A DNA stretch of 64,000 nt from Bradyrhizobium sp. Ec3.3 (GTDB lineage: Bacteria > Pseudomonadota > Alphaproteobacteria > Rhizobiales > Xanthobacteraceae). The notes beneath the pieces are model-generated. The model had not been told where the DNA came from. It saw nothing but the letters and a program-made list of their open reading frames with translations, and searched no databases. The position numbers and the translations under genes are program-made. The stretch lies in assembly GCF_000472925.1 (NCBI RefSeq), contig NZ_AXAS01000043.1, positions 1 through 64,000 on the forward strand, given 5' to 3'. Positions 41,207-56,750 of the stretch are shown here, piece after piece (the first letter of the stretch is position 1; each line of letters opens with the position of its first letter).

Positions 41207-41355
41207 AAGTAAGAAGGGGCTAAAATACAACCCCCACTTGGGTGTCGCCGCGATCACCCTGCTCTGCTTTTGCGATCCGAAGCCAATTCCACGGATGCTG
41301 GCGCACTTATTGTCCGACAGGTAACGGCCTCTGTTTTTTTCAGGGGAGGATAGCA

Positions 41356-42363
41356 GTGGCGTGGAGTAGAGTATTTGATTTTACCGAACCGTCGGCGTGC
41401 TCCGCAGTCATTCGGTCTGCACAACTCGAACTGATCCCGACCGTGAGGGGACGTTTCCATGCCGAGATCACACAGATCGGCATGAACAGGCTCCTGGTTC
41501 ATCGGTTCCATGTGTCCCTTCCTCAGGTCAACACTGTCGCGGTCAAGCCCGGGCGTAGATCGATCGGCTTTCTTTCCGAACCCGGTTCGTCACGATTCCT
41601 GCACTGTGGCGTCGAGATTTTGCCTGGCGACATCATACTGAACCGGTCCGATGTCGTACATCAACGATCCGACGCTAACCTTCACTACGGAACAATGTCT
41701 CTTCCGATTGATGATCTGGATGCTGCTGCTGAGACAATAATCGGCCGTGAGTTTCCGAAAACGCGGCAAACGCAAATCGTTCGCCCACATTCTGCACTGA
41801 CGGTTCGACTGTTAAAGTTGCACAAGAGCGTCGGGCAGCTTGCTCATGATAATCCGGATATTCTTGAGTTGCCGCAAGTGCTTCGGTCGTTAGAGCATGA
41901 GCTCATTCACCTCATGGTGAGGTGCCTCGCCGAAGGCGCTGCCGTCGAGCCAAGCGCCGGGGGCCGTCGCCACGAGATCATCGTGGCGCAGTTTGAGGAA
42001 TTCTTGGAAGCAAATCCCAGCCGGCCGCTTTATCTCGTCGAAATTTGCGCGGCGATCGGTGTTGCCGAGAGATCGCTTCGCGCCTCCTGCAAAGAGCATC
42101 TCGGCATGGGCCCAATCCGCTATCTCACCTTGCGCCGAATGCACCTCGTGCGGCGGGCGCTCCTGAGTTCAGATCCGTGGAAGGCGACTGTTACGCAGAT
42201 CGTTACGGACCATGGCTTTTGGGAACTCGGACGTTTTTCGGTTGCCTACAATCTGCTGTTCGGAGAGACACCCTCGCATACACTGCGCCGTCCTGCGGAG
42301 CAGCCGGAAGTCCATCACGATCGTCCCTCATCGCTGGCAGTCACACACTTGCCGGTCGCTTGA
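41356..42363 (+). CDS. AraC-family regulator (paralogue 1)
   Basis: Transcription regulator of 335 residues. The C-terminal HTH domain is clear: LVEICAAIGVAERSLRASCK, HLGMGPIRYLTLRRMHLVRRALL and VTQIVTDHGFWELGRFSVAYN with LFGETPS. The N-terminal half (about 1-220) resembles the sensor part of AraC proteins, but its ligand is not predictable. The GTG at 41356 has CAGGGGAGGA just upstream; longer frames are weaker. It is related to the gene at 43751 and the two flank a trypsin-like protein gene. Confidence 0.86.
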   Translation: MAWSRVFDFTEPSACSAVIRSAQLELIPTVRGRFHAEITQIGMNRLLVHRFHVSLPQVNTVAVKPGRRSIGFLSEPGSSRFLHCGVEILPGDIILNRSDVVHQRSDANLHYGTMSLPIDDLDAAAETIIGREFPKTRQTQIVRPHSALTVRLLKLHKSVGQLAHDNPDILELPQVLRSLEHELIHLMVRCLAEGAAVEPSAGGRRHEIIVAQFEEFLEANPSRPLYLVEICAAIGVAERSLRASCKEHLGMGPIRYLTLRRMHLVRRALLSSDPWKATVTQIVTDHGFWELGRFSVAYNLLFGETPSHTLRRPAEQPEVHHDRPSSLAVTHLPVA

Positions 42364-43193: not shown

Positions 43194-43750
43194 CGCAATG
43201 TCCCCTGTTCCCCAGACTGAGGGGAAGATGAACTCTGCGACGGGGCAATAGGAAAGATCGACTTATCCAGAAGGGCTCTCCGGAATCCGGGACGTTTCGC
43301 GCCGCACTGTCACGCATTTGTCACAGATGCTCCTGCTGGAATACAACAAGGAAGAATGGATTTTGGGGCCGCCTATGCGGAGAGCTTAGCCGGGCCAATG
43401 CCGCGGCAAACCGAACGTGACGCTGGCGGAGAGCGCGGTATCTCCATAAACCCGGCACATAGCTGCAACTCTAGCTTTAATCTCCGTTCAGTTTCGCGCT
43501 TTCTTTCTTGCTTGCTCCCTTCAAATTTGTCACGGGCGTTGTGCTTGCGCCTCATCTGAAGACAAACGGCGCGCAGCCTGACGAGATCACAGCTTGCCGG
43601 AATTGCATATTCGTCACATTCCACCCGCCGGACCGAACTTCCGAACCTGCATAGCCGAAGGCGGTCAGTTGCCTGATACTCCTGCGTGCGGTGAGACCCG
43701 TAATTCAACTGGTCGCAAGAACTGTCCGCCGGTCCAACGGGACGGGACAC
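43194..43750. other. 557-bp gap, no gene recognised
   Basis: This divergent space separates the peptidase gene and the second AraC gene. It should hold both promoters. A plus-strand frame at 43356-43559 (MDFGAAYAESLAGPMPRQ) has no recognised relative. No clear palindrome was seen. Confidence 0.4.
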
Positions 43751-44689
43751 ATGGCAGAGACTTGCATACTTACCTTTGGCGATCCCGATAGTTACTCAGC
43801 CGGATTCGCCGATGCATGTATCAATCTCACGATAACAGGTGCCGGCGATTTCAAGGCACGGCTGACACGGCTGAAATTGAAGGATCTGGAAGTCTCTCTG
43901 TGTTGCGAGAACCTTCCGCGCTTTGCCTGTGTCTCGCTACCCCCGGAGCGAACGTTCATGTCGTTTCCAGTGGATGCGGAATCTCTCATATCCGACGGAT
44001 TTGCTTTGCGTAGCGGCGACGTCGTTTTGCACGGTCGTGGCCAACCCACGCATCAACAAACCAACGGCGCATGCCAATGGGGTTTGATCGCGCTATCTCC
44101 TGGGGTACTTGGGAGTTGCAGCAAGGCATTGACGGGTCGGACGATTACGCCGCCGCACACAAGCAAGATACTCCGCCCGGCGCCGGCGGAGGCATTGAGA
44201 TTCCAGCGTCTTTTTGCGAAAGCCTGCCGCCTTGCGGAAAGGCAAAAACTGGCTCCCGAGGCGGCAAGAGCGCTGGAGCGGGAACTACTTCACGCGACGA
44301 TCAATTGCCTGGCCGCCAACGAGACGGGCGACAATCCCAAGACTAGACTCCATCACGGCGCAGTGATCGCTCGTTTCGAAGAAGCGATAAGCAAACGCTT
44401 CGACCAAAAGCTAAGCATGTCCGCGCTTTGTGCAGAGATCGGCGTGCCAGAGCGAACACTGCGCATGTGCTGCACTGAATTTTTTGGCGTAAGCCCCACG
44501 CGATATCTCTTATTGCGACGATTGAACAAGGCTCGCGCCGCGTTGCGACGTGCCGATCCTTCGACAACGAGCGTGTCGGAAGTCGCCCGAAATCATCAGT
44601 TCCTCGAACTTGGGCGGTTCGCGGTGACGTATCGCATCACCTTCGGTGAATCGCCTTCGGTCACACTGCAACAGACTCCGCAAAGTTAG
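43751..44689 (+). CDS. AraC-family regulator (paralogue 2)
   Basis: Regulator of 312 residues with the same layout as the one at 41356. The HTH domain reads MSALCAEIGVPERTLRMCCT, EFFGVSPTRYLLLRRLNKAR and VSEVARNHQFLELGRFAVTY with FGESPS. The two share the ELGRF(S/A)V block and the preceding linker pattern, so they are probably old duplicates. The ATG at 43751 is chosen as the first Met with a complete sensor-like N terminus. It precedes the tandem sulfatases by 189 bp in the same direction and could regulate them (inference). Confidence 0.85.
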   Translation: MAETCILTFGDPDSYSAGFADACINLTITGAGDFKARLTRLKLKDLEVSLCCENLPRFACVSLPPERTFMSFPVDAESLISDGFALRSGDVVLHGRGQPTHQQTNGACQWGLIALSPGVLGSCSKALTGRTITPPHTSKILRPAPAEALRFQRLFAKACRLAERQKLAPEAARALERELLHATINCLAANETGDNPKTRLHHGAVIARFEEAISKRFDQKLSMSALCAEIGVPERTLRMCCTEFFGVSPTRYLLLRRLNKARAALRRADPSTTSVSEVARNHQFLELGRFAVTYRITFGESPSVTLQQTPQS

Positions 44690-44878: not shown

Positions 44879-46594
44879 ATGAGCATGTTCAGAACAATCT
44901 GGGGCGCTCTTGTCGTGTTGTGTACCACCACGACAATGGCGAGCATTCCTGCCTCCGCCCAGCAGGGACAAAAGCCCAACATCCTCTTCATCATGGGCGA
45001 CGACATCGGATGGATGCAGCCGAGCATCTATCACCGCGGGTTGATGGTTGGCGAGACGCCGAACATCGATCGCATCGGTAACGAAGGTGCGATGTTCGTG
45101 GACTACGTCGCCATGCAGAGCTGCACCTCCGGTCGCAACGCGTTCTTCACCGGCATGTATCCGCTGCGCACCGGCATGATCCCGCCGCAGCTCCCGGGGA
45201 GCCCGTCCTACCTGCGGCCCGGCACGCCTGCGCTCGCCCAGTTCCTGCTCGATCTCGGCTACAACACGGGCGAGTTCGGCAAGAACCATCTCGGCGACCA
45301 CACCGAGGCCCTGCCGACCGCGCACGGCTTCCAGGAATACTGGGGCTATCTGTACCACCTCGATGCGATGCAGCAGGTCAGTTTCCCTGACATCAACAAG
45401 ACTCCGCTCCAACAGACGGTTGCGCCGCCGTGCAAGAACACGCCGATTCCCGGCGTGCCGGAAGTGCCCGGCGCAGTCGATCCCAAGACCACGCTGTGTC
45501 TGACGCCCCCGCGCAACGTCCTCTGGTGCAAATCTCCGGACGGCACGGCCAAGAGCCAGATGTGCAGCGATGAGGGCCCGTTGACGCTCGACCGCTCGAG
45601 GACGGTGGACGAGGAGATCTCGGAGAAGGTCGTCGACTTCCTCGACCGCAACGATCCGAAGAAGACCAATAAGCCCTTCTTCGTCTGGTACAACCCGGCG
45701 CGCATGCACGTCGTCACCGTACTGCCGCCGAAGTACGAGGCCATGGTGGGCGAGCGCGGCGGTAAGGACTGGGGCGTCAACGAAGCCGGCATGAAGCAGA
45801 TGGACGACAACATCGGTGTCGTGCTCAAGAAACTGGACGACATGGGCCAGGCCGACAATACCATCGTTGTGTTCACCACCGACAACGGCGCCGAGGCGAT
45901 CTCCTTCCCGGACGGCGGCGTGACACCGTTCAAGGGCCAGAAGGGCGAAGCCTGGGAAGGCGGCTACCGCGCACCGATGGTGATCAAGTGGCCAGGCGTC
46001 ATCAAGCCGGGCACGGTGAAGAACCAGCTCTTCGCGGCGCTCGACTGGGTGCCCACCTTGGTCAATATTGCCGGTGGACCCAAGGGCGACGAGTTGAAGC
46101 AGCAGATCGAGGCAGGGAAGTACCCCGGCATCGTCAAGACGACCCTCGACGGCTTCGACCAGCGCGACTACCTCGAAGGCAAGTCGGACAAGTCGGCTCG
46201 AGACCACTTCTTCTATTTCTCGGGCGCGACGCCGTCCGCGGTGCGCTACAAGAACTGGAAGATGTACTACACCATGTCGCAGCCCGGGCCGGCCGGCTGG
46301 ATCATGCCGCTCATCCCGTTCCACTTCACGCTCGTCCAGAACATCAAGCGCGATCCGTTCGAGCAGGCGGTCGGCATCGACCAGAAGACGGCGATGAGCT
46401 TGGGCGGTGCGCTCGGCTCCCCGGCGACCGCCTTCCAGTACGATTGGAACATGCTGCCAATCGGTCAGCGGCTGTGGCTGGCGCACCTGACGAGTTACGA
46501 GAAGTTCCCGCCGCTACAGGCGCCGGAGAGCTACAACCTCAGTCAGGTGCTGGACGAGGTCAAGAAGGCCAATGCCAGTGGAGCGAGCGACTAG
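44879..46594 (+). CDS. Exported sulfatase (arylsulfatase type), first of a tandem pair
   Basis: Sulfatase of 571 residues that would hydrolyse a sulfate ester in the periplasm. A signal peptide ends at ASIPASA. PNILFIMGDDIG carries the metal-binding Asp pair, SCTSGRNAFFTG has the Cys (residue 82) to be converted to formylglycine, and GKNHLGD and FTTDNGAE complete the metal and substrate sites. The activating motif is Cys-Thr-Ser-Gly-Arg, lacking the canonical Pro. No formylglycine-generating enzyme is in the window. I start at the Met beginning the signal peptide (44879). A hairpin 20 bp after the stop and another near 46700 separate it from its paralogue. Confidence 0.92.
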   Translation: MSMFRTIWGALVVLCTTTTMASIPASAQQGQKPNILFIMGDDIGWMQPSIYHRGLMVGETPNIDRIGNEGAMFVDYVAMQSCTSGRNAFFTGMYPLRTGMIPPQLPGSPSYLRPGTPALAQFLLDLGYNTGEFGKNHLGDHTEALPTAHGFQEYWGYLYHLDAMQQVSFPDINKTPLQQTVAPPCKNTPIPGVPEVPGAVDPKTTLCLTPPRNVLWCKSPDGTAKSQMCSDEGPLTLDRSRTVDEEISEKVVDFLDRNDPKKTNKPFFVWYNPARMHVVTVLPPKYEAMVGERGGKDWGVNEAGMKQMDDNIGVVLKKLDDMGQADNTIVVFTTDNGAEAISFPDGGVTPFKGQKGEAWEGGYRAPMVIKWPGVIKPGTVKNQLFAALDWVPTLVNIAGGPKGDELKQQIEAGKYPGIVKTTLDGFDQRDYLEGKSDKSARDHFFYFSGATPSAVRYKNWKMYYTMSQPGPAGWIMPLIPFHFTLVQNIKRDPFEQAVGIDQKTAMSLGGALGSPATAFQYDWNMLPIGQRLWLAHLTSYEKFPPLQAPESYNLSQVLDEVKKANASGASD

Positions 46595-46613
46595 CTGCGC
46601 AAAGCGCCATGAT

Positions 46614-46646
46614 GTGATCGGGCGCGCCCCGACCGAGCCCGATCAC
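46614..46646 (+). terminator. Terminator-like hairpin after first sulfatase
   Basis: GTGATCGGGC and GCCCGATCAC form a perfect 10-bp stem around a 13-base loop, 20 bp after the sulfatase stop. There is no T-run, so termination might be partial. It is the first of two hairpins in the 164-bp intersulfatase gap. Confidence 0.6.
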
Positions 46647-46678
46647 GACCACTGAAGTGATGAAGCTTTCCAGAGTGA

Positions 46679-46717
46679 TGCGAGCTCTATTGGATCAGGA
46701 ATCCAATAGAGCTCGCA
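46679..46717. other. Long perfect hairpin between sulfatase genes
   Basis: Arms TGCGAGCTCTATTGGAT and its complement (17 bp) enclose a five-base loop, with no mismatch. It ends 41 bp before the second sulfatase start. It is less GC-rich than a typical terminator stem here and no T-run follows. It could act as an operator, an mRNA processing site or a translation-control stem. Confidence 0.75.
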
Positions 46718-46758
46718 GAACTGTGGGCCGGCTGCGAGCCGGGTTTGGAGGATTGATC

Positions 46759-48357
46759 ATGTGCAATCCGAAAAACACATTCCTCAGGTTGCTCGCGGTT
46801 CTTGTAGCTGCAACCTCAATCCTTGCACCGGCATCTGCACAGCAGCCGCAGAAACCTAATATCCTCGTCATCATGGCCGACGACATCGGGTACTGGAACA
46901 TCAGCGCCTATAACCGGGGACAGATGGGCTATCGCACGCCCAACATCGATCGTATCGCCAACGAGGGCGCGATCTTCACCGACTATTATGGTCAGCAATC
47001 CTGCACTGCCGGGCGCGCCGCATTCATTACCGGACAAAGCCCGCTGCGCACGGGACTTTTAAAGGTTGGCCTGCCCGGGGCGAAAGAGGGATTGTCCGAC
47101 AAGGATCCGACGATTGCCGAATTGCTCAAGCCACAGGGCTATGCGACGGGACAATTCGGCAAGAACCATCTTGGCGATCGCAACGAATTCCTGCCGACCG
47201 TACATGGCTTCGATGAGTTTTTCGGCAACCTCTATCATCTCAATGCCGAGGATGAACCGGAGCACGCAGACTATCCGAAGAACCCGGCGTTCAGGGCGCA
47301 GTTCGGTCCGCGCGGCGTCCTAAAATGCATTGCAACGACCACCGACACGCCGGGTGACGATCCACGCTTTGGTCCCTGGGGCAAACAAAAATGCGAAGAT
47401 ACCGGGCCGCTCACCAAGAAGCGCATGGAAACAGTCGACGAGGAGTTCATCAAGGCCTCCACTGATTTCATCGAACGCGCCAACCGCGACGGAAAGCCGT
47501 TCTTCGTCTGGTTCAATCCGACCCGGATGCACATCTGGACCCGGCTAAAGCCGGAGTCACAAGGCAAGACCGGCTTTGGCCTCTATCCGGACGGCATGGT
47601 CGAGCATGACGGGCAGGTCGGACAGCTATTGAAGAAGCTCGACGACCTCGGCATCGCCAACAACACGATCGTGATCTACACCACCGATAACGGCGCCGAA
47701 ACATTCTCCTGGCCCGACGGCGGCGCAACCCCCTTCCGGGGCGAGAAGAACACCAATTGGGAAGGCGGCTATCGTGTGCCTGCGATGGTGCGATGGCCTG
47801 GACTGGTCCCTCCCCGTAGCGAGATCAACGATATCTTCTCTGCCGAGGATTGGGCGACCACGCTGGTCGCCGCGGCCGGCGAACCCGATATCAAAAACAA
47901 GCTGTTGCAGGGCTATGACGCGGCGGGCAGAAATTTCAAGGTTCACCTCGATGGATACGACCAGCGCGATCTGCTCGCAGGCAAGGGGGCGGACAAGCGC
48001 CGCGAGTTCTTCTACTGGACCGACGACGGCAACTTGGCCGGCTTGCGCTACGATCAGTGGAAGGCGGTGTTTTTGGAGCAGCGTGCCCACGGTCTCGATG
48101 TCTGGGCGGAGCCTCTGCAGCAGCTGAGGTTACCCAGATTGCTTAACTTGCGATCCGATCCTTTCGAGCGGTCGCAGCACGAATCGGGCGACTACGTGCG
48201 ATGGTTCATTGAACACGCCTTCCTGCTTGTGCCGGCGCAGGCGATCGTTGCGCAACATATCGCAAGCTTCCGCGAATTCCCCCCGCGCCAGCGGCCCGGC
48301 AGCTTCTCGGTCGAGCAGGCGATGGAAAAGCTGAGGCTCCCCCCATCGACGAATTAG
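46759..48357 (+). CDS. Exported sulfatase (arylsulfatase type), second of a tandem pair
   Basis: Sulfatase of 532 residues, paralogous to the gene upstream. The signal peptide LRLLAVLVAATSILAPASA is followed by PNILVIMADDIGYWNISAYN, SCTAGRAAFITGQSPLRTG (formylglycine Cys, again residue 82; Ala in the Pro position), GKNHLGDRNEF and YTTDNGAETFSWPDGG. The ATG at 46759 follows GGAGGATTGATC. The pair differ mostly in the middle region (the first has an insertion rich in Cys and Pro), which suggests different substrates. A small secreted-protein gene follows directly. Confidence 0.92.
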   Translation: MCNPKNTFLRLLAVLVAATSILAPASAQQPQKPNILVIMADDIGYWNISAYNRGQMGYRTPNIDRIANEGAIFTDYYGQQSCTAGRAAFITGQSPLRTGLLKVGLPGAKEGLSDKDPTIAELLKPQGYATGQFGKNHLGDRNEFLPTVHGFDEFFGNLYHLNAEDEPEHADYPKNPAFRAQFGPRGVLKCIATTTDTPGDDPRFGPWGKQKCEDTGPLTKKRMETVDEEFIKASTDFIERANRDGKPFFVWFNPTRMHIWTRLKPESQGKTGFGLYPDGMVEHDGQVGQLLKKLDDLGIANNTIVIYTTDNGAETFSWPDGGATPFRGEKNTNWEGGYRVPAMVRWPGLVPPRSEINDIFSAEDWATTLVAAAGEPDIKNKLLQGYDAAGRNFKVHLDGYDQRDLLAGKGADKRREFFYWTDDGNLAGLRYDQWKAVFLEQRAHGLDVWAEPLQQLRLPRLLNLRSDPFERSQHESGDYVRWFIEHAFLLVPAQAIVAQHIASFREFPPRQRPGSFSVEQAMEKLRLPPSTN

Positions 48358-48360
48358 GAG

Positions 48361-48696
48361 GTGACTTTGCTCTCTCTCCTGCACTATCGCACGAACGGTC
48401 GCCTTCTGGTTTCGATCTTGACGATGTTGCCCGCCTTATCCGGACCGCTCCCGACGGAGCCGGCATCGGCGCAGACAAACCCGTCCGGGAGCCCATTGCC
48501 TGGAAATACAGTCAAGGACATGCTGGCAGCACAGATCCGGACTCAAGGCGTTGCGTGCGAACAACCCAAGCGCGCGATACGAGACGCGAAGCGATCAAGG
48601 CCGGACTACGAGGTTTGGGTTTTGCAATGCAGCAACGCCACGTACAGGATCAGTCGCTACCCCGACATGGCAGCGAAGGTGGAGCAACTGAGATAG
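48361..48696 (+). CDS. Small secreted protein after sulfatases
   Basis: 111 residues from the GTG at 48361. The N terminus is hydrophobic (LLVSILTMLPALSG) and ends at a likely cleavage site EPASA|Q. The mature part is about 75 residues with two Cys residues and ends YEVWVLQCSNATYRI then SRYPDMAAKVEQLR. From memory, similar proteins occur in Bradyrhizobium, with unknown function. The gene follows the second sulfatase by three bases, with AGGAGG spanning the boundary, so a slightly later start such as the ATG at 48424 is possible. Confidence 0.6.
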   Translation: MTLLSLLHYRTNGRLLVSILTMLPALSGPLPTEPASAQTNPSGSPLPGNTVKDMLAAQIRTQGVACEQPKRAIRDAKRSRPDYEVWVLQCSNATYRISRYPDMAAKVEQLR

Positions 48697-48735
48697 CGCT
48701 CCCCGCATGGCGCCGGGGCCGCGCTCGCAAACCGT

Positions 48736-48818
48736 ATGCGGATTATGACCAATGTCTAGTTTGGGACGGCTACGGCTGGGTGAACGGCTGCTATCAAGGC
48801 TATGGCTACGGGTGGTGA
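48736..48818 (+). pseudogene. C-terminal remnant of a small Tyr/Trp/Cys-rich protein
   Basis: The last 27 codons read PYADYDQCLVWDGYGWVNGC followed by YQGYGYGW and a stop. This looks like the end of the small secreted Cys/Trp/Tyr-rich proteins common in this group. No matching signal peptide or start precedes it; upstream bases in this frame overlap the previous gene. It may be a remnant. Confidence 0.3.
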
Positions 48819-48939
48819 GAAAAGGGATCGCTTGGCACGCGTCATATTCACCTCGGCACCGCGGAACATGGAGCCTTCTGACCGGAATGCTCTGAATTGC
48901 CGAATTTGCATAGCCCGCACCGAATCCTTTGATCAATCT

Positions 48940-48954
48940 ACCCTTCTAAAGGGT
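48940..48954. other. Small inverted repeat before cytochrome gene
   Basis: ACCCTT and AAGGGT flank CTA, 25 bp upstream of the multiheme cytochrome start. It could be a small operator or a translation-control stem. Only the symmetry supports it. Confidence 0.3.
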
Positions 48955-48979
48955 CGGCGAGGTCTAGCGAGTAGGGCCA

Positions 48980-51457
48980 GTGGCGCGCAAGAAGGGACGA
49001 ACCGGCAACCGCGACGAGCCGTCAGAGCGCGCCGCCCCATCGAGGCCAGCCGCGGACGCTCGGAACGAAGCTGTCAGCGCCCAACCCCATCGCTCTCGGA
49101 CATCGAAGCTGCGGATTGCAGTGTTTGCGTCAATTGCAGCGATCGCGATAGGTAGCCTGGGCGTCTTCCTCCTCGGCGAGGAAAGAGCCGGCTTGCCCGA
49201 GACGCTACATCGCACGAGTGCGGCCACTGCTCCCGCCTTCGTCGGCAGCGAAGCCTGCGGCGAATGTCACAAGACTGAAGCAGCGTTGTGGGCCGGGTCC
49301 CAGCACCGGCACGCCATGCAGCACGCCAGTGCCGCCTCCGTGCTCGGTGACTTCAACGATGCGAGCTTTGATTACTACGGCGTCCATTCCCGCTTCTTCA
49401 AAACAGGGAACAAATTTTTCGTCGAGACCGACGGCGCCGACGGCAAGCTTGCGACCTTCGAGGCGAAATATACCTTCGGAATCGCCCCCCTCCAGCAATA
49501 TCTGGTCGAATTTCCGGATGGCCGCATACAGGCACTTTCAATCGCCTGGGACAACCGGCCGAAGGACCAGGGCGGCCAACGCTGGTTTCATCTCTATCCA
49601 AATGAAGCGATCAAACACGACGACGTGTTGCATTGGACCAAGCTCAATCAAAACTGGAATTTCATGTGCGCCGAGTGCCATTCGACGGGCGTGCAAAAGA
49701 ACTACGACGTGGCCAACGACCGGTTCCACACCAACTGGGCGGAGATCAGTGTCGGCTGCGAGGCATGCCACGGCAAGGGCTCACGACACGTCAACTGGGC
49801 ATACAGTCAGCGGAGCTGGTGGCCATTCGGACGGGATAAAGACCCTCTGAAGGGCCTTGCCGTGTTTCTCGACGAGCGGGACGGCGTGATTTGGAACCGC
49901 GATCCCAAGACCGGCAATCCGCAACGCAACGTCTCCCCTGCTGCGATACGCCGGGAAGTCGAGACCTGCGGCTTGTGTCATGCGCGACGGGCACAGTTTT
50001 CCGAGGACTGGATACCAGGGCGGCCATTGTCCGACACGCACCAGGTCTCCAATCTGGCCCGCGGTCTCTATCACGCCGATGGGCAGATGCTCGACGAAGT
50101 CTACAACTACGGCTCGTTCAAGCAGAGCAAGATGTTTGCAGCTGGCGTCACCTGCAGCGATTGCCACGATCCGCACGCCGCCAAATTGCGCGCGTCCGAC
50201 GATGGCGTGTGCTTGCAGTGCCACGCTTCAGACAGCTATGAGGTTGCATCCCATACCCACCACAGTGACGTGACACCAAAAGTCACCTGTGCGTCCTGCC
50301 ATATGCCGGTCAGCACCTATATGGTGGTTGACAAGCGGCATGATCACAGCCTTCGAATTCCCAGGCCGGATCTTTCCGTGAAACTTGGCACGCCGAACGC
50401 CTGCAACAATTGTCACGTCGACAAATCCGCACAATGGGCGACCGATGCAGTCGAGCGCTGGCATGGGCCGGGTCGAAAAGGTTTCCAGAATTACGCTGAG
50501 GCCTTCCAGGCTTCTTGGACTGATCGTAGCGACGCGGCCGCTCTGCTGGCGTTCGTTGCAGCTAGCCCCACAATGCCGGCGATCGCGCGAGCAAGCGCTT
50601 TGAGCGAACTTCGATCCCGGGTCTCGCCCGCTACTATCGAGCTTGCCCGCAAGGGCTTGGCCGATCCTGATCCGATGGTTCGGATTGGTGCCCTCGAGAT
50701 GCTCGACGGCCTTCCAGGCGACCGGCTCTGGCCCCTGGTCTCACCCCTGCTCTCCGATTCAAGCCGTGGCGTTCGTATCAGGGCAGTGTCGGTGCTGGCT
50801 GCGGTGCCCGCTGCCAACCAGCCCGTCTCCGATCGTGCGGCTTACGAGACGGCAACAGCCGAGTTCATCGCCGCGCAACGTTTCAACGCTGATCGACCTG
50901 AAGCTCGCTCAGCGCTCGGAAACTTCTTCGTCAGTCGCGGACTCACCACCGACGCAGAGAGCGAATACAAGAGCGCACTGCGCCTTAGCGCGCAATATGC
51001 GCCTGCCGCGATCAATCTCGCAGATTTGTACCGACGACTTGGCCGTGAGGGTGACGGAGCGAGCGTGCTGAGGACAGCCATCGTATCGTCCCCCCGGGAC
51101 GCAGGACTGCACCATGCGCTCGGGCTCACCCTGACGCGACAGAAGTTGCCGGATGATGCACTCGGCGAATTCCGCCACGCGACCGAGCTGGAACCTGATC
51201 GGGCACGCTACGCCTATGTTTACGCCGTGGCGCTGCATTCATCGGGCCGCATCGATGAGTCGATGAAGGTTCTGAAGGAGAACCTGGCCCGGCATCCCGA
51301 AGATCGCGATACCCTGTTGGCGCTGGCAACCTTCAGCCGCGACTCCGGAGATCTAGGTACCGCACTCGACTATCTCGAGCGCCTCTCCCATCTCGCGCCA
51401 AACGACCGCAACCTGGCTCGTCTAACCGACGAACTCCGCGCACGTTTGAAACAATAG
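48980..51457 (+). CDS. Octaheme c-type cytochrome with HEAT-like and TPR repeats
   Basis: 825 residues. A charged N terminus and one membrane helix (about 45-65, IAVFASIAAIAIGSLGVFLL) anchor it, with the rest in the periplasm. Eight Cys-x-x-Cys-His heme sites are visible: CGECH, CAECH, CEACH, CGLCH, CSDCH, CLQCH, CASCH and CNNCH, from about residue 93 to 474. It then has HEAT-like repeats (about 500-620) and TPR units up to the end. Such c554-type and NrfA-adjacent proteins transfer electrons, but the redox partner is unknown. It follows the sulfatases in the same direction and starts at GTG. Confidence 0.9.
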   Translation: MARKKGRTGNRDEPSERAAPSRPAADARNEAVSAQPHRSRTSKLRIAVFASIAAIAIGSLGVFLLGEERAGLPETLHRTSAATAPAFVGSEACGECHKTEAALWAGSQHRHAMQHASAASVLGDFNDASFDYYGVHSRFFKTGNKFFVETDGADGKLATFEAKYTFGIAPLQQYLVEFPDGRIQALSIAWDNRPKDQGGQRWFHLYPNEAIKHDDVLHWTKLNQNWNFMCAECHSTGVQKNYDVANDRFHTNWAEISVGCEACHGKGSRHVNWAYSQRSWWPFGRDKDPLKGLAVFLDERDGVIWNRDPKTGNPQRNVSPAAIRREVETCGLCHARRAQFSEDWIPGRPLSDTHQVSNLARGLYHADGQMLDEVYNYGSFKQSKMFAAGVTCSDCHDPHAAKLRASDDGVCLQCHASDSYEVASHTHHSDVTPKVTCASCHMPVSTYMVVDKRHDHSLRIPRPDLSVKLGTPNACNNCHVDKSAQWATDAVERWHGPGRKGFQNYAEAFQASWTDRSDAAALLAFVAASPTMPAIARASALSELRSRVSPATIELARKGLADPDPMVRIGALEMLDGLPGDRLWPLVSPLLSDSSRGVRIRAVSVLAAVPAANQPVSDRAAYETATAEFIAAQRFNADRPEARSALGNFFVSRGLTTDAESEYKSALRLSAQYAPAAINLADLYRRLGREGDGASVLRTAIVSSPRDAGLHHALGLTLTRQKLPDDALGEFRHATELEPDRARYAYVYAVALHSSGRIDESMKVLKENLARHPEDRDTLLALATFSRDSGDLGTALDYLERLSHLAPNDRNLARLTDELRARLKQ

Positions 51458-51931
51458 CCATTGATACGTGACTATTGGCTGAATGCACTGCTGATGCCGT
51501 GCCAGTCTGGTCCTTTAGGGCTATCATCGTGGGAGGCGGCATCGTGAGTGGCGCTTCTGTTCGCCTAGGCGGGCAGCAGAACTAGGCCAGCACCACCTAG
51601 GCGGTGGCGCGCCCACCAGAATGATCCACCATTGTCGCCCACTGATTTCGTCGGCAGTACGCTTGGCAGCTGCCTTGCTCAGCCCTCATTCAACAACACT
51701 TCGCACCATGGCCTCTCGACCTTTACGACGGTCGAGCGACGCTGTGGGAAAATGGCAGGGTTGTGCGCGGCAACTGTGACACCCGAGACACAGTCTCGAA
51801 CAAACAGCAGGAGGCCGGGACGCTTGCCGATTCGGCATAGACGTAGCCCCCTGGTACCGGACTATGTTGACGTCGTGGGCATATTTTGGGGGATTTGGGA
51901 GAATTAAGGCCAGGAATTAGGGGACTGACAC
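51458..51931. other. 474-bp gap, no gene recognised
   Basis: Between the cytochrome and SphA-type genes. CGCCTAGGCG, a 10-bp perfect palindrome (51562-51571), and a second CCTAGGCGG nearby (about 51596) are the only symmetry noticed. The open frames have no motif. The end holds the ribosome-binding site (AGGGGA) for the next gene. Confidence 0.4.
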
Positions 51932-53014
51932 ATGTGGGATCTTGGATCGAGGTCAGCACTGCGTCTTTTGTGCATTGGATCGTTTGCCGCTCTATTCGCG
52001 CTTCCAGTTCGAAGCGCTCTCGCCGACGAAGGTGGCGTCAGCTTTTGGGTGCCCGGCCTCTATGGCAGCCTCGCAGCTGTGCCCCAGCAGGCGCCGGGGT
52101 GGTCGGCGACCACCATTTATTGGCATGACTCGGTTTCTGCCAGCGGCGACGTGGCGCGCGCCCGGGAGATCACCCTCGGCAATATTCCCGCGAATGTCAC
52201 AGCCACCGCGAACGCCAACGTCCACGCCAATCTGGATATTGGCTTTTTGATCGCGAACTACGCCTTCGAAACGCCGGTGTTCGGCGGGCAGGCCTCCGCC
52301 GGCTTTCTTGCGGCCTACGGCGCCAACAGCACGTCGCTGGCTGGAACCCTCACGGGAACGGTGACGGGCCCCGGCGGCGGCACATTTCCTTTCTCGCGCT
52401 CCGACAGCATCAACAGCTCGATCATGGGATTTGGCGATGTGTACCCGCAGTTCGCGCTGCGCTGGAATGCCGGCGTTAACAACTACATGACCTACATCAC
52501 CGGGGACATCCCGGTCGGGATGTACGACTCTGCCCGTCTTGCCAACATAGGGATCGGGCATTGGGCGCTCGACGCCGGCGGCGGCTACACTTATTTTGAC
52601 CCAAAGACCGGGCACGAATTTTCGGCGGTGCTCGGCTTCACGTACAACTTCGTCAACCCGTCGACTCAATATCAGAGCGGTGTCGACATGCACCTCGACT
52701 GGGGCGCGTCGCAATTCCTGACCAAGCAGTGGCAGGTCGGCCTGGTAGGTTATCTCTATCAGGAGATCGGCTGCGACAGCGGCTCCGGTGATCGCGTCGG
52801 CTGCTTCCGGTCGCGGGTGCAGGGCATCGGACCGCAGGTTGGTTACATCTTTCCGCTCGCAGACAAGCTGCAGGGCTACCTCAACCTGAAGGCCTACGGC
52901 GAATTCGCCAATGCCAGTCGGCCCGCGGGCTGGAACCTCTGGCTGACGTTCAATATTTCGCCTGCAGCGGCAACGCCGCCAACGACGCCCCCAAGGCCAA
53001 TGTTCACGAAATAG
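51932..53014 (+). CDS. SphA-type outer-membrane channel protein
   Basis: 360 residues with a signal peptide (LLCIGSFAALFALPVRSALA). The mature protein begins GGVSFWVPGLYGSLAAVP, a recalled hallmark of SphA/phenol-meta-pathway (COG4313) outer-membrane proteins, and continues in alternating strands ending FANASRPAGWNLWLTFNIS. It is probably a beta-barrel for small hydrophobic or aromatic compounds. TTAGGGGACTGACAC precedes the ATG. It shares direction with the cytochrome and orphan binding protein, but the gaps are large, so an operon is not certain. Confidence 0.85.
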   Translation: MWDLGSRSALRLLCIGSFAALFALPVRSALADEGGVSFWVPGLYGSLAAVPQQAPGWSATTIYWHDSVSASGDVARAREITLGNIPANVTATANANVHANLDIGFLIANYAFETPVFGGQASAGFLAAYGANSTSLAGTLTGTVTGPGGGTFPFSRSDSINSSIMGFGDVYPQFALRWNAGVNNYMTYITGDIPVGMYDSARLANIGIGHWALDAGGGYTYFDPKTGHEFSAVLGFTYNFVNPSTQYQSGVDMHLDWGASQFLTKQWQVGLVGYLYQEIGCDSGSGDRVGCFRSRVQGIGPQVGYIFPLADKLQGYLNLKAYGEFANASRPAGWNLWLTFNISPAAATPPTTPPRPMFTK

Positions 53015-53504
53015 AAGCCGCCGGTGCCTCCAGCGCATCGACCACCTCAATCCTTTTGGCGGCGCCAGTTTTTGATCTGGAACCTGCTCCGCGCTGCACA
53101 CGCCGACTTTGACCGAACGTGGATAGCGCGCGGCTCTCATCTACTCCCGGGACGCTGAGGTTTGCGCACGCAAATTGCCAGTACCCGCTACCAACAGCGC
53201 GCATAGTTCAGTTTCATCGAAAACATTAGATAGGCGATTGCGGAGCACAACAAACTCGCGAACAGCCGGTCGATTCGGAGTTTTCACGGCCGGTGGCCGA
53301 CGAGTGATCCGAGGGATCGCAGACAAGCGACAGGGATGAGACCGCCATACTCCCGCTCTTAATGGGGTGATGATCGACAGGGTGGAAACGCCGCAGCGCG
53401 CCTCGGAGGCAGCAACAAGAGCCTCGATCAATCTCAACCCGTTGATCTTGGCCCGCGACAGACTCGACAACGAACGAGCGCGCGGCACGTTTGAGGGAGA
53501 CGAT
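53015..53504. other. 490-bp gap, no gene recognised
   Basis: Between the SphA-type and binding-protein genes. No motif-bearing frame was found. The open frame that runs into the binding-protein gene from 53367 has a non-signal-like N terminus and is probably not translated. Confidence 0.4.
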
Positions 53505-54797
53505 ATGCGGCGAACACCGGCTTGGTTCGGCTTGTTGGTTTGCGCCGGATTGCTGGCCACCATCGCGGATGCAGCTGACCCAACCGGGCGTCTGGTCTTT
53601 CTGTCGACCCAACTGCGGCCGATAGGCGAGGCGCAGAAGATGCGCAACCTGGTCCTCAAGGAGTTCTCCCCTGAGGTCGACTACATCACCGATCTGCCGC
53701 AGCGACTTCTGACGCGCATAGAGACGGAACGACAGGTCGGTATGCATAACATAGATGTCGTGGGAGCGCTCCATGGAGAGTTGCAGCCGCTCGCGACCCT
53801 CGGCGCGTTGGTCCCGCTCGATGACCTCGCTGGCAAGCTGGCTGGCCGCGGCATCCCCAATCGACTGTTGGCACTTGGCAAATTTGGCTCCCCACACCAG
53901 CTCTATATACCCTGGATGCAGGCTGGCTACATCATGGTCGCCAACAAACAGGCGCTACCCTATTTGCCGAGTGGAGCGGACATCAATGCCCTCACCTACG
54001 ATCAACTCGGGACGTGGGCCATAACGCTCCAGCAGAAGACGGGCAAGCGCCTGCTCGGTTTTCCAGCAGGCCCGCATGGGTTGATGCATCGCTTTTTCGA
54101 GGGCTTCCTTTACCCGTCGTATACTGGCGGGGTGGTGGTTCCGTTCCGCTCGGAGGCGGCGGAAGCGATGTGGACGCAGTTCGCGTCGTTATGGAGGAGT
54201 GTCAACCCGAACTCGACCGGCTACAATTTTATGGATCAGCCCTTGCTTTCCGGCGACGTCTGGATCGGCTTCGATCACATCGCCCGCGTGCTCGGGGCGC
54301 TGCGTCAGAAACCGAACGAATTTGTCGCCTTCCCCGCGCCCGCCGGACCCAAGGGGCGCGGCTACATGCCGCTTCTGGTCGGCCTGGCGGTGGTGAAGGG
54401 CGCGCCCGACATCGCTGAATCGATGGCGCTGATCGACTATCTGACCCAACCTGCAACGCAGATCACCTTGGCTCGTACCGTCGGCTTCTTCCCGGTGGTG
54501 AGTGCGAAGTTGCCGCCGGATCTTGATCTCGGCCTGAAGATGGGCGCCGGTGCAATTGCAGAGATGCAGTCGGCGAAGGATGCGCTGCCGGCGCTGCCGC
54601 CGGTCGGCTTCGGCGAGCGCGACGCCGAGTTCGACAGCGTGTTCATGGAGACGTTCCAGCTGATCGTCTTGCGGGGGCAGAAGACGCGCCCAGTACTCGA
54701 TCGCGAGGCAGAGACGCTGAAGCGCCTGATGAGCGAGACCGGTGCGTCATGCTGGCAACCCGATCCTGCCAGTACTGGCCCATGCCTGGTCCAATAA
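53505..54797 (+). CDS. Orphan ABC-type solute-binding protein, family 1
   Basis: 430 residues with signal peptide MRRTPAWFGLLVCAGLLATI then ADA. The mature part follows the family 1 fold: GRLVFLSTQLRPIGEAQKMR, NIDVVGALHGELQPL, LPYLPSGADINALTYDQLGT and MALIDYLTQPATQITLARTVGFFPVV. The ATG at 53505 has GAGGGAGACGAT upstream. No permease or ATPase lies nearby, so it must use a distant transporter or act as a sensor or scavenging protein. The ligand is unknown. The gene is convergent with the adenylate cyclase. Confidence 0.85.
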   Translation: MRRTPAWFGLLVCAGLLATIADAADPTGRLVFLSTQLRPIGEAQKMRNLVLKEFSPEVDYITDLPQRLLTRIETERQVGMHNIDVVGALHGELQPLATLGALVPLDDLAGKLAGRGIPNRLLALGKFGSPHQLYIPWMQAGYIMVANKQALPYLPSGADINALTYDQLGTWAITLQQKTGKRLLGFPAGPHGLMHRFFEGFLYPSYTGGVVVPFRSEAAEAMWTQFASLWRSVNPNSTGYNFMDQPLLSGDVWIGFDHIARVLGALRQKPNEFVAFPAPAGPKGRGYMPLLVGLAVVKGAPDIAESMALIDYLTQPATQITLARTVGFFPVVSAKLPPDLDLGLKMGAGAIAEMQSAKDALPALPPVGFGERDAEFDSVFMETFQLIVLRGQKTRPVLDREAETLKRLMSETGASCWQPDPASTGPCLVQ

Positions 54798-54851: not shown

Positions 54852-56750
54852 TTACGCAACGGCTTCGACCAACTCATAGACGCGGGTTTCCGCCTTCATC
54901 CCCTTGGCGGTTACCGAACCGATGGCGTTGAATCGAAAGCGATGCTCGACGCGGTTGTGCACAGCCTCACTGACAAGGATCCTCGTCCCATACGCCTTGT
55001 TGAGTCCTTCGAGACGAGCAGCAAGATTCACGCTGTTACCCAGAACCGTATAGTTCATACGTTCCGTCGAACCGACATTTCCCACCACGGCATCGCCGAC
55101 ATGGATGCCAATGCGAGCGACGAACGGTGGCAGCCCCTCGGCTTCAAACTGAGCATTCAGCACGTCGCTCGCCGCCTTTGCCGAAAGGGCGGCCCGACAG
55201 GCCCGCTCGACATGATCGGCCTGCAAATGGGGAGCGTTCCAAAACACCATCACCGAGTCTCCGATGAACTTGTCCACGGTTCCGCCCTCGGCAAGAAGCG
55301 CTTCCGTCAGCGCCGCGAAATGGCGCGAGGTCTGGCGCATCAGACTGTCAGGGTCGGCGGCTTCGGAAATGCCGGTAAAATTCGTCACGTCGGTAAACAG
55401 GATGGAGACCTCCCTCCTCGTTCCCCCAAGCTCGGTGGAGATCGAGCCATCGACGATTCCTCTCACGATGTCCTTCGGGACAAAGCGTGCGAACGACCAG
55501 ATGCTGCGCTGGGCAACCGCCATCGTCCTGCCGAGTTCGTTGACCTCCGCGATATTCGATGTGACCGGAGCATCGCCCGGCGCCGCTAAAGCCTGGAGTC
55601 CCCTCGCTTGGGTAGTTATCCGTTTCAGCGAGGTCGACATCCGGCTGCCAAAGACCCAGGCCGCGGGCACAAAGCAGCTGCCGACGATCAGGGCAATGAC
55701 TAGCCCCCTGAACTGCAATTTCCTGACGTTCTGTGAGAAATCATCTTCAGCCGCAAACAACATGGAATAGCCGCTGTATTGCTCTCCTTGAGAAAATTTT
55801 TGCACGCGAAAAAGGTAGTCTCGTCCATCTTCGCCGCGCACGCTCCCCTCAAAGCGATCGCGGCCGTCCCACCTTTGCATGACGGCGCCGACCAGCCCGG
55901 TCCGGATTTCCCAAATCTCGGGGAGCTGCGGACGCGAGGGATGAGCCCTGGCTTCATCCACGAGCCGCTTGAAGTCGGGGTGAGCGATGAGTACGCCGAA
56001 CGAATCGAAGATGACGGCTGTTCCGTGCTCCCCCGGGCGTTGCGCGTTGACCAGCTCGCTGAACTTATCAAGCTTGAGGTCAGCGGCGATGACGCCGCGG
56101 ACATGCCCGTGCAGAGGTGCACTCAGGGTGATCATCGGCGTGCCGATGCTGAATGAAGCATATGGCGGCGAAACGAGAGCCCTTCCTGCATGCAACGTAT
56201 CGCGGTACCAGACTCGTTTTCTTGGGTCATAATTGTAGTCCGGCAGATCGACCTGGTCAGTCTTGTTGCCTTCGGCGTCTTCGAATATCCGCCGCATCGG
56301 CAATGCTCCGCCGGCAGTCGGGTGGACCAAATTGACGTTGTAAACGGCACCGGGTGGGGCACCCAGCTTTTGGCGCTCCGCCGGCTCGAGGACATCGAGG
56401 CGCCGGACCTGAAGCCAACAACCGTTTTCGTACCCGATATAGAAGCTATCCACCTGCTGCAGTTTCTGGAGCGCAGCTTTGAAGAGGACGATTGCGCTAT
56501 CCTCCTCGTTCCTGTCGTCGGAGTCTGCGAGAGACGGATTCGATGACAGCACTTCAACGACGGAGCTCAGTCCGGAAACCTCAGCCTCGAGCCGACTAAG
56601 GGTGTTCGCACTGGCAGCATCCATGGCGGTAGAGGCCGCTGCTCTCGCGACCGCATGAAAAGTCTGGAGCTGGACAAGAATAAGACATGCCGTCAGGGTT
56701 GCAATGAAGGCGATCACAGCCGCCGTTATCGCGATCCTGAACGTAAGCAT
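54852..56750 (-). CDS. Cache-HAMP adenylate/guanylate cyclase (class III)
   Basis: Membrane signalling enzyme of 632 residues. Helix 1 is at residues about 5-28, a periplasmic double-Cache domain spans about 30-335 (YDPRKRVWYRDTLHAG, PMITLSAPLHGHVRGVIAADL), helix 2 is at about 345-370, then HAMP, and the class III catalytic domain (VSILFTDVTNFTGISE, metal Asp; GDSVMVFWNAP, second Asp; HVGDAVVGNVGS; NYTVLGNSVNLAARLEGLN). It would make cAMP or cGMP in response to a small ligand outside. A FixK/FNR box 64 bp upstream suggests microaerobic control. Confidence 0.93.
   Translation of the reverse strand: MLTFRIAITAAVIAFIATLTACLILVQLQTFHAVARAAASTAMDAASANTLSRLEAEVSGLSSVVEVLSSNPSLADSDDRNEEDSAIVLFKAALQKLQQVDSFYIGYENGCWLQVRRLDVLEPAERQKLGAPPGAVYNVNLVHPTAGGALPMRRIFEDAEGNKTDQVDLPDYNYDPRKRVWYRDTLHAGRALVSPPYASFSIGTPMITLSAPLHGHVRGVIAADLKLDKFSELVNAQRPGEHGTAVIFDSFGVLIAHPDFKRLVDEARAHPSRPQLPEIWEIRTGLVGAVMQRWDGRDRFEGSVRGEDGRDYLFRVQKFSQGEQYSGYSMLFAAEDDFSQNVRKLQFRGLVIALIVGSCFVPAAWVFGSRMSTSLKRITTQARGLQALAAPGDAPVTSNIAEVNELGRTMAVAQRSIWSFARFVPKDIVRGIVDGSISTELGGTRREVSILFTDVTNFTGISEAADPDSLMRQTSRHFAALTEALLAEGGTVDKFIGDSVMVFWNAPHLQADHVERACRAALSAKAASDVLNAQFEAEGLPPFVARIGIHVGDAVVGNVGSTERMNYTVLGNSVNLAARLEGLNKAYGTRILVSEAVHNRVEHRFRFNAIGSVTAKGMKAETRVYELVEAVA

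What the first reader, a model, noticed from the sequence alone, without database searches (positions are those of the whole stretch)
44879..54797. Possible functional group: sulfatases, octaheme cytochrome, SphA channel, orphan binding protein
All seven intact genes in this stretch read in the same direction and almost all encode exported or envelope proteins. They could together take up and process a sulfated or aromatic compound outside the cytoplasm, with the cytochrome as electron sink. Gaps of about 470-490 bp between later genes make one operon unlikely, so the link is a hypothesis.
Basis: inference. Interest (0 to 1): 0.55.

Follow-up and report, generated by a model that had tools for sequence, protein, structure and literature searches.

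The report
Cytochrome that may activate sulfatases
An uncharacterised eight-heme protein made next to sulfatase enzymes appears to stand in for the known enzyme that switches sulfatases on, which makes it a candidate for a long-sought extra way in which bacteria activate these enzymes.

Summary
The genes are as described: two exported Cys-type sulfatases, an octaheme-HEAT-TPR cytochrome (CYT), a PF13557 protein and an orphan binding protein on one strand. Sulfatase plus CYT is a conserved association; the binding protein is not part of it.

Of 199 genomes of the same order, 51 carry this class of sulfatase. All 51 have the formylglycine-generating enzyme FGE (30, one truncated at a contig end) or CYT (32); 11 have both. 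All 21 without FGE have CYT, against 11 of 30 with FGE (p=1e-6). None of the other 148 has CYT. FGE and CYT sit beside orthologous sulfatases with the same partner genes. Two CYT-bearing genomes keep decayed FGE remnants beside intact sulfatases.

Best explanation: CYT is a periplasmic, heme-based replacement for FGE that makes, or directly enables, Cys-to-formylglycine conversion. The chemistry is unproven. Its heme core is of the OcwA/MccA type. Against it: nine metagenome-assembled genomes have CYT without a clear class sulfatase, and many genomes carry other PF00884 proteins with neither enzyme. My paper searches listed no work linking multiheme cytochromes to sulfatase maturation.

The parts
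44879..46594 (+). exported Cys-type sulfatase 1 (571 aa), Sec-like signal peptide; active-site motif CTSGR at 45122-45136
   Evidence: PF00884 E 1.7e-45; active-site residues conserved in A2; coordinates
46759..48357 (+). exported Cys-type sulfatase 2 (532 aa), Sec-like signal peptide; active-site motif CTAGR at 47002-47016
   Evidence: PF00884 E 2.6e-50
48361..48696 (+). small secreted-looking protein (111 aa) starting 3 bases after the sulfatase 2 stop; relatives beside CYT or sulfatase genes in other loci
   Evidence: no Pfam/NCBIfam family
48980..51457 (+). CYT: octaheme c-type cytochrome with hydrophobic N-terminal signal/anchor, beta domain (about 49361-49591), HEAT and TPR repeats; proposed FGE-independent sulfatase maturase
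   Evidence: 8 CxxCH; AF2 pLDDT 90.8; neighbourhood, phylogenetic profile, swap and FGE-decay evidence
49256..50416 (+). eight CxxCH haem motifs starting at 49256, 49667, 49757, 49967, 50153, 50210, 50288, 50402
   Evidence: conserved in aligned relatives
50495..51451 (+). HEAT then TPR superhelix (approximate limits from the model), likely protein/peptide-binding arm
   Evidence: AF2 model and TPR matches
51932..53014 (+). PF13557 (Phenol_MetA_deg/SphA-like) outer-membrane protein, recurrent but optional partner
53505..54797 (+). orphan extracellular solute-binding protein; not a conserved partner
43691..44689 (+). AraC-family regulator upstream (a second one at 41242-42363); possible regulators
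   Evidence: HTH_18; this cluster found in 5 of 86 loci, window included

Best explanation
The cytochrome is a periplasmic sulfatase-maturation factor that does, by haem chemistry, what the copper enzyme FGE does in the cytosol. The sulfatases are exported through Sec with the active-site Cys unmodified. CYT, anchored in the membrane and facing the periplasm, binds them (probably through its TPR/HEAT arm and beta domain). It removes two electrons from the CxxxR cysteine at an OcwA/MccA-type haem centre, giving formylglycine, and passes the electrons along its haem chain. SHOWN: linkage, nesting of CYT within class-sulfatase-bearing genomes of the order, complementarity with FGE, exchange of FGE and CYT beside orthologous sulfatases, FGE decay in two CYT-bearing genomes, haem-motif count, predicted fold. 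INFERRED: that CYT itself forms formylglycine, the oxidant, the binding mode, the catalytic haem.
For: (1) Linkage: sulfatase in 57 of 86 CYT loci; class sulfatase within 10 kb of CYT in at least 26 of 32 CYT+ genomes of the order sample (match lists were cut, so a minimum). (2) Nesting: CYT in 32 of 51 genomes with class sulfatase, 0 of 148 without (Fisher 4.9e-24). (3) Complementarity: FGE-lacking 21 of 21 have CYT, FGE-bearing 11 of 30 (Fisher 1.2e-6; 2.2e-5 if truncated G174 is counted FGE-less); 0 genomes with neither, against a mean of 5.6 when FGE labels are shuffled within families (0 of 20,000 shuffles as low). (4) Swap: FGE and CYT stand beside sulfatases with the same HAD/DUF1254/PF13557 partners and the same motif QQSCTAGRAAFITGQ; labels interleave on the sulfatase tree, 13 changes, at least 11 forced. 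(5) Decay: internally deleted FGE remnants beside intact sulfatases in CYT+ genomes G156 and G006. (6) anSME over cut-off in only 2 of 31 CYT+sulfatase genomes searched (31 given of 36 at hand). (7) Other genomes: of 34 CYT+ genomes without a close sulfatase neighbour, 32 have no strong FGE match and 25 have class sulfatase elsewhere. (8) Fold: OcwA Z 18.1, MccA Z 8.6, families with catalytic open-site haems (PMC6703420, passages). (9) Twin-arginine-like signals in 4 of 19 FGE-only against 0 of 35 CYT-only sulfatases (p 0.012).
Against: No biochemistry. 9 of 34 CYT+ genomes, all metagenome-assembled and of untold completeness, show no class sulfatase at E<=1e-100 (7 none at 1e-30, 2 weak). In the order sample 111 genomes outside the class have a PF00884 match (E<=1e-20); by my reading, 96 of them have neither FGE nor CYT. 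PF00884 also covers enzymes that need no formylglycine (recalled), and how many of these are Cys-type was not determined, but some are: cytosolic PMH-like enzymes with CGPSR occur in FGE-less genomes (L134, L147) and could not be reached by a periplasmic enzyme. G065, G066 and G068 have sulfatases at 260-271 bits to the class model with neither FGE nor CYT. 11 genomes, including the window's own, have both. The cut-offs for class (1e-140) and FGE (5e-70) were set after seeing the score gaps; A2 was built from CYT-linked sulfatases. anSME was not searched in the order sample; one CYT genome without FGE (G023) has anSME. Cys oxidation without O2, peroxide or radical SAM is chemically demanding.
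Confidence: 0.65

Rival explanations
1. CYT is needed for sulfatase activation but is not the catalyst: it is the electron acceptor or redox partner of an unidentified maturase, or it keeps the exported active-site Cys/formylglycine in the right redox state.
For: All the profile, swap and decay evidence is equally expected. Multihaem cytochromes are often electron carriers (recalled).
Against: No third gene recurs with CYT as often as the sulfatase: PF13557 18, HAD 17, DUF1254 11 of 86 loci, and these also occur with FGE. An unlinked maturase is not excluded.
Confidence: 0.2
2. One reading: the group takes up and oxidises a sulfated or aromatic compound, with the cytochrome as respiratory electron sink.
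For: Exported sulfatases, a PF13557 channel and a cytochrome on one strand; recurrent PF13557 and other putative outer-membrane proteins.
Against: The same partner genes occur with FGE and no cytochrome. One CYT coexists with several unlinked sulfatases (G036) and CYT-linked sulfatases are of different subfamilies. The complementarity with FGE is unexplained.
Confidence: 0.09
3. The association is ecological: lineages with CYT have sulfatases that function with unmodified Cys, and CYT serves anaerobic or metal respiration (OcwA-like).
For: Unmodified S. meliloti choline sulfatase keeps some activity (PMC6189696, passages). OcwA is the nearest solved relative.
Against: 0 of 148 genomes without class sulfatase have CYT and 21 of 21 FGE-less class-sulfatase genomes do. 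The Cys motif is identical in FGE and CYT genomes.
Confidence: 0.06

Closest known systems
Formylglycine-generating enzyme (FGE/SUMF1, PF03781)
   Same: Genomic partner of the same class of sulfatases; proposed same product (formylglycine from Cys); stands in the same kind of gene set
   Different: Unrelated protein and cofactor: FGE needs copper (PMC4505483, start of abstract in the listing) and is cytosolic in bacteria (recalled); CYT is an eight-haem c-type protein that is assembled in the periplasm
anSME (radical SAM sulfatase maturase, TIGR03942)
   Same: Alternative to FGE for maturing sulfatases
   Different: Cytosolic Fe-S/SAM enzyme (recalled); over cut-off in only 2 of 31 genomes searched
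'Third' sulfatase maturation system inferred in E. coli (Benjdia et al. 2007, cited in PMC6189696, passages)
   Same: FGE- and anSME-independent maturation of Cys-type sulfatases
   Different: Called elusive and unidentified in PMC6189696 (2015); whether E. coli carries a CYT-like protein was not tested here
OcwA, MccA, NrfA, cytochrome c554 haem-core superfamily
   Same: Haem-domain fold (OcwA Z 18.1, rmsd 3.4, 324 residues aligned; MccA Z 8.6) and sequence relatives (OcwA E 5.4e-20, MccA 1.5e-7)
   Different: OcwA is a haem domain plus a three-helix bundle, without the HEAT-TPR arm; OcwA reduces metals, nitrite and hydroxylamine and MccA sulfite; no sulfatase link is mentioned in the OcwA paper (0 occurrences)
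MauG (c-type dihaem enzyme, TTQ maturation)
   Same: Precedent for a c-type haem enzyme that oxidises an active-site residue of a partner protein (PMC6405878, passages)
   Different: Two haems, peroxidase superfamily, different target

Membership tests
Type I (formylglycine) sulfatase | PF00884 domain with metal Asp pair and CxxxR nucleophile motif | tested here: met
   PF00884 in both; D41, D42, C82, R86, K135, H137, H277, D335, N336(N/G context), K355 invariant or in the invariant list of A2
Type I (formylglycine) sulfatase | Nucleophile converted to formylglycine | not testable with these tools
   needs mass spectrometry
FGE (PF03781) | PF03781 domain with the Cys pair GGSxLCxxxxCxx[YF]R | tested here: not met
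   CYT has no PF03781 match; the pair was read in all 29 full-length FGEs of the class-sulfatase genomes
anSME | radical SAM domain / TIGR03942 | tested here: not met
   no radical SAM family among CYT matches
OcwA/MccA/NrfA multihaem superfamily | shared haem-core fold | tested here: met
   Foldseek 6i5b E 1.1e-12, MccA 4.7e-4; VIA Z 18.1 (OcwA), 12.5 (6qvm), 8.6 (MccA)
OcwA/MccA/NrfA multihaem superfamily | at least one haem with an open distal site | tested here: inconclusive
   7 invariant or near-invariant non-motif His for 8 haems, plus 3 invariant Met; ligation not resolved
MauG/bCCP | dihaem peroxidase family | tested here: not met
   eight haem motifs; no such Pfam family among the matches
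Sulfatase-maturation enzyme (function) | converts Cys to formylglycine | not testable with these tools
   genomic inference only

The most novel reading that the evidence does not exclude
Octaheme-HEAT-TPR cytochromes are a third, periplasmic, haem-based class of formylglycine-forming enzyme that has repeatedly replaced FGE in Proteobacteria and possibly beyond, acting after Sec export on several sulfatases per cell.
Probability: 0.6. Interest if true: 0.93.

Novelty: categorically new. Interest (0 to 1): 0.85.

Why it matters
Two sulfatase-maturation systems are known (FGE and anSME), and a third has been inferred in E. coli without an identified enzyme (PMC6189696, passages, citing Benjdia 2007). 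A haem-based periplasmic maturase would be a new kind of protein-modifying chemistry. It would explain how FGE-less bacteria activate sulfatases used to recycle organic sulfate, and could offer a new aldehyde-tag tool. It gives an unnamed, widespread cytochrome family a directly testable role.

Tried and rejected
Binding protein and adenylate cyclase as partners: the binding protein is not recurrent; the cyclase cluster (f44) is shared in the survey only with two close Bradyrhizobium loci (L030, L031). Different Cys motif for CYT-served sulfatases: rejected, motifs overlap. NCBIfam gave no family over cut-off for CYT. PDB fold search of the whole model was swamped by TPR proteins, so the haem domain was folded alone. 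Apparent exceptions: G060 and G152 have PF03781 hits of 228 and 208 bits, but these lack the Cys pair and score under 80 bits against the own FGE, so I count them FGE-less; G174 has an FGE cut by a contig end. G065, G066 and G068 remain unexplained. Paper searches whose listings showed nothing linking multihaem cytochromes to sulfatase maturation: (open-access library only; two searches listed 20 of 95 and 12 of 72 papers; the one paper, PMC5573963, was seen in the listing only). Of the papers cited I saw passages of PMC6189696, PMC3920027, PMC3141025, PMC6703420 and PMC6405878 and the listing of PMC4505483.
Full report
OBSERVATION. The window is G000:C87:1-64000 of a 10.03 Mb genome. Both sulfatases are Cys-type (CTSGR, CTAGR) with the type I active-site residues and Sec-like signal peptides (by eye). 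In the own genome only the window copy matches CYT's haem part; the other 14 matches cover repeats only. The genome has 18 PF00884 matches, two of them pieces of one locus and one weak, and two FGE genes elsewhere, one cut by a contig edge.

NEIGHBOURHOODS. Relatives of CYT in the plasmid collection were read in five of 160 records (R. binae, Methylocystis, Vibrio, Methylosinus, S. medicae); all five have an arylsulfatase in the 9-kb flanks. Their alignment with the window protein (A1) was used for one scan of 84,980 genomes. 566 stretches encode relatives and the best 80 were kept, so the sample leans to close relatives. Among 86 loci (80 + 5 + window; many cut by contig ends) a sulfatase-family ORF occurs in 57, a PF13557 protein in 18, an HAD hydrolase in 17 and a DUF1254/DUF1214 protein in 11 (Pfam names from one representative each). 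The loci range from Bradyrhizobium to Beta- and Gammaproteobacteria, a Gemmatimonadetes and a Rokuibacteriota metagenome-assembled genome. CYT has 8 haem motifs in 104 of 107 sequences counted (some loci overlap); the others have 7, 7 and 3, the last in a short fragment.

FIRST HINT. 36 loci with CYT and sulfatase were given to an FGE search and 35 were held. 13 of 35 have a clear FGE (E<=5e-70); one more (G022) is borderline at 232 bits. Of 31 CYT+sulfatase genomes searched for anSME (30 of these 35 and the window's own) 2 pass the curated cut-off, G009 and G023. In 13 genomes picked as FGE-less, a search with the own FGE protein found no full-length FGE in 13 of 13, one of them (G006) with a remnant. 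The PF03781 proteins read in five of these genomes (G005, G013, G015, G017, G018) lack the Cys pair and score under 50 bits against the own FGE.

PHYLOGENETIC PROFILE. The same 199 genomes of the window's order (asked for at least 95% complete) were searched for FGE, the CYT haem domain, all PF00884 and the class of sulfatases linked to CYT (profile A2 of 13 sequences). Class sulfatases (E<=1e-140; a cut-off set at the gap between 504 and 271 bits in the best match per genome) occur in 51. FGE was counted at E<=5e-70; the Cys pair was then read in all 29 full-length cases among the 51, and G174 has an FGE truncated by a contig end beside a sulfatase. Result: FGE only 19, FGE and CYT 11, CYT only 21, neither 0. 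CYT occurs in 0 of the 148 remaining genomes. Fisher tests, a within-family shuffle of FGE labels (observed 0 with neither, mean 5.6, none of 20,000 as low) and a genus-level table (p 2.2e-5) agree. Seven families contain both FGE-bearing and FGE-less members. Class sulfatase lies within 10 kb of CYT in at least 26 of 32 genomes and of FGE in 14 of 19 FGE-only genomes (read). The limit of this pattern: 111 of the 148 genomes outside the class have some PF00884 match (E<=1e-20), and 96 of these have neither FGE nor CYT (my reading). How many of those proteins need formylglycine was not determined.

OTHER GENOMES. 34 CYT-bearing genomes whose CYT had no, or only a fragmentary or distant, sulfatase neighbour (many Beta/Gammaproteobacteria) were searched. 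25 have a class sulfatase elsewhere (E<=1e-100), including all six isolates among them (four Dyella, Kaistia hirudinis, Marinobacter mobilis); 7 have no match at 1e-30 and 2 only weak ones, all nine metagenome-assembled. A strong FGE match is found in 2 of these 34: G263, and G235 at a contig edge.

EXCHANGE AND DECAY. FGE loci carry the same sets: SULF-HAD-FGE (L214), FGE-SULF-DUF1254-PF13557 (L258) and so on; CYT loci read SULF-HAD-CYT (L230). Sulfatases with identical active-site sequence occur in both groups. On a tree of 55 class sulfatases (36 from FGE-less CYT genomes, one of which, G023, has anSME; 19 from FGE-only genomes) the labels change 13 times, at least 11 forced by well supported branches; shuffled labels give a mean of 16, and 36 of 500 shuffles are as low. 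Some rows have long branches. In two CYT-bearing genomes, G156 (100% complete) and G006 (metagenome-assembled), an internally deleted FGE remnant of 155 and 130 codons stands beside an intact sulfatase. So FGE has been lost where CYT is present while the sulfatase was kept.

COMPARTMENT. c-type haems are attached in the periplasm (established knowledge), so CYT acts after export. Twin-arginine-like signals were found in 4 of 19 FGE-only and 0 of 35 CYT-only class sulfatases (p 0.012). In the window's own genome the two sulfatases at the FGE locus have twin-arginine-type N-termini (one passes the strict pattern) while the two in the window look Sec-type. This is modest but in the expected direction: cytosolic maturation before Tat export versus periplasmic maturation after Sec export.

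STRUCTURE. AF2 models: whole protein without its first 72 residues pLDDT 90.8, haem domain 84.5. The haem domain matches OcwA (Z 18.1, rmsd 3.4, 324 residues), the C. ferrireducens undecaheme cytochrome (12.5) and MccA (8.6), and by sequence OcwA, MccA and cytochrome c554. In OcwA haems 2 and 5 have open distal sites, haem 2 is the active site in c554 and MccA, and MccA and OcwA share an extra beta-sheet domain (PMC6703420, passages). CYT has a beta domain between haems 1 and 2, seven (near-)invariant extra His and three invariant Met. An open catalytic haem is plausible but not shown.

MECHANISM AND LIMITS. A c-type haem enzyme that matures an active-site residue has a precedent in MauG (PMC6405878, passages). 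Whether CYT uses O2, peroxide or its haem chain as oxidant is unknown. CYT might instead serve another maturase. Cytosolic PMH-like Cys enzymes and the sulfatases of G065, G066 and G068 exist without FGE or CYT, so CYT is not a universal answer, and 11 genomes keep both. anSME was not searched in the 199-genome sample. That I know of no print report rests, listings in an open-access library only.

Noticed in passing
48361-48696: 111-aa secreted-looking protein right behind sulfatase 2; relatives in CYT loci L030, L044, L046, L049, L050, L051, L233 and, as a partial match, beside another own sulfatase (L003). Possibly a sulfatase accessory factor.
   Followed up: partly
G000:C136:13-390 (L028, L262): Second FGE gene of the same genome, cut by a contig edge, about 9 kb from another class sulfatase.
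   Followed up: partly
L134, L147, L162: Cytosolic-looking PMH-like enzyme with CGPSR motif in FGE-less (G015, G018) and FGE-bearing (G000) genomes alike; how its Cys is matured, if at all, is open.
   Followed up: no
L087, L090, L098, L102: In Dyella and a Chromatiales genome CYT follows a conserved multi-gene block (clusters f13, f14, f18, f21, mostly f16) instead of a sulfatase; L043 has the same block with sulfatase ORFs further off. The block was not identified with a tool.
   Followed up: no
54852-56750: Minus-strand adenylate/guanylate cyclase with a Cache sensor domain downstream; the cluster (f44) is shared with two close Bradyrhizobium loci, L030 and L031.
   Followed up: no
G065, G066, G068: Genomes with divergent sulfatases (260-271 bits to the class model) and neither FGE nor CYT.
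   Followed up: no
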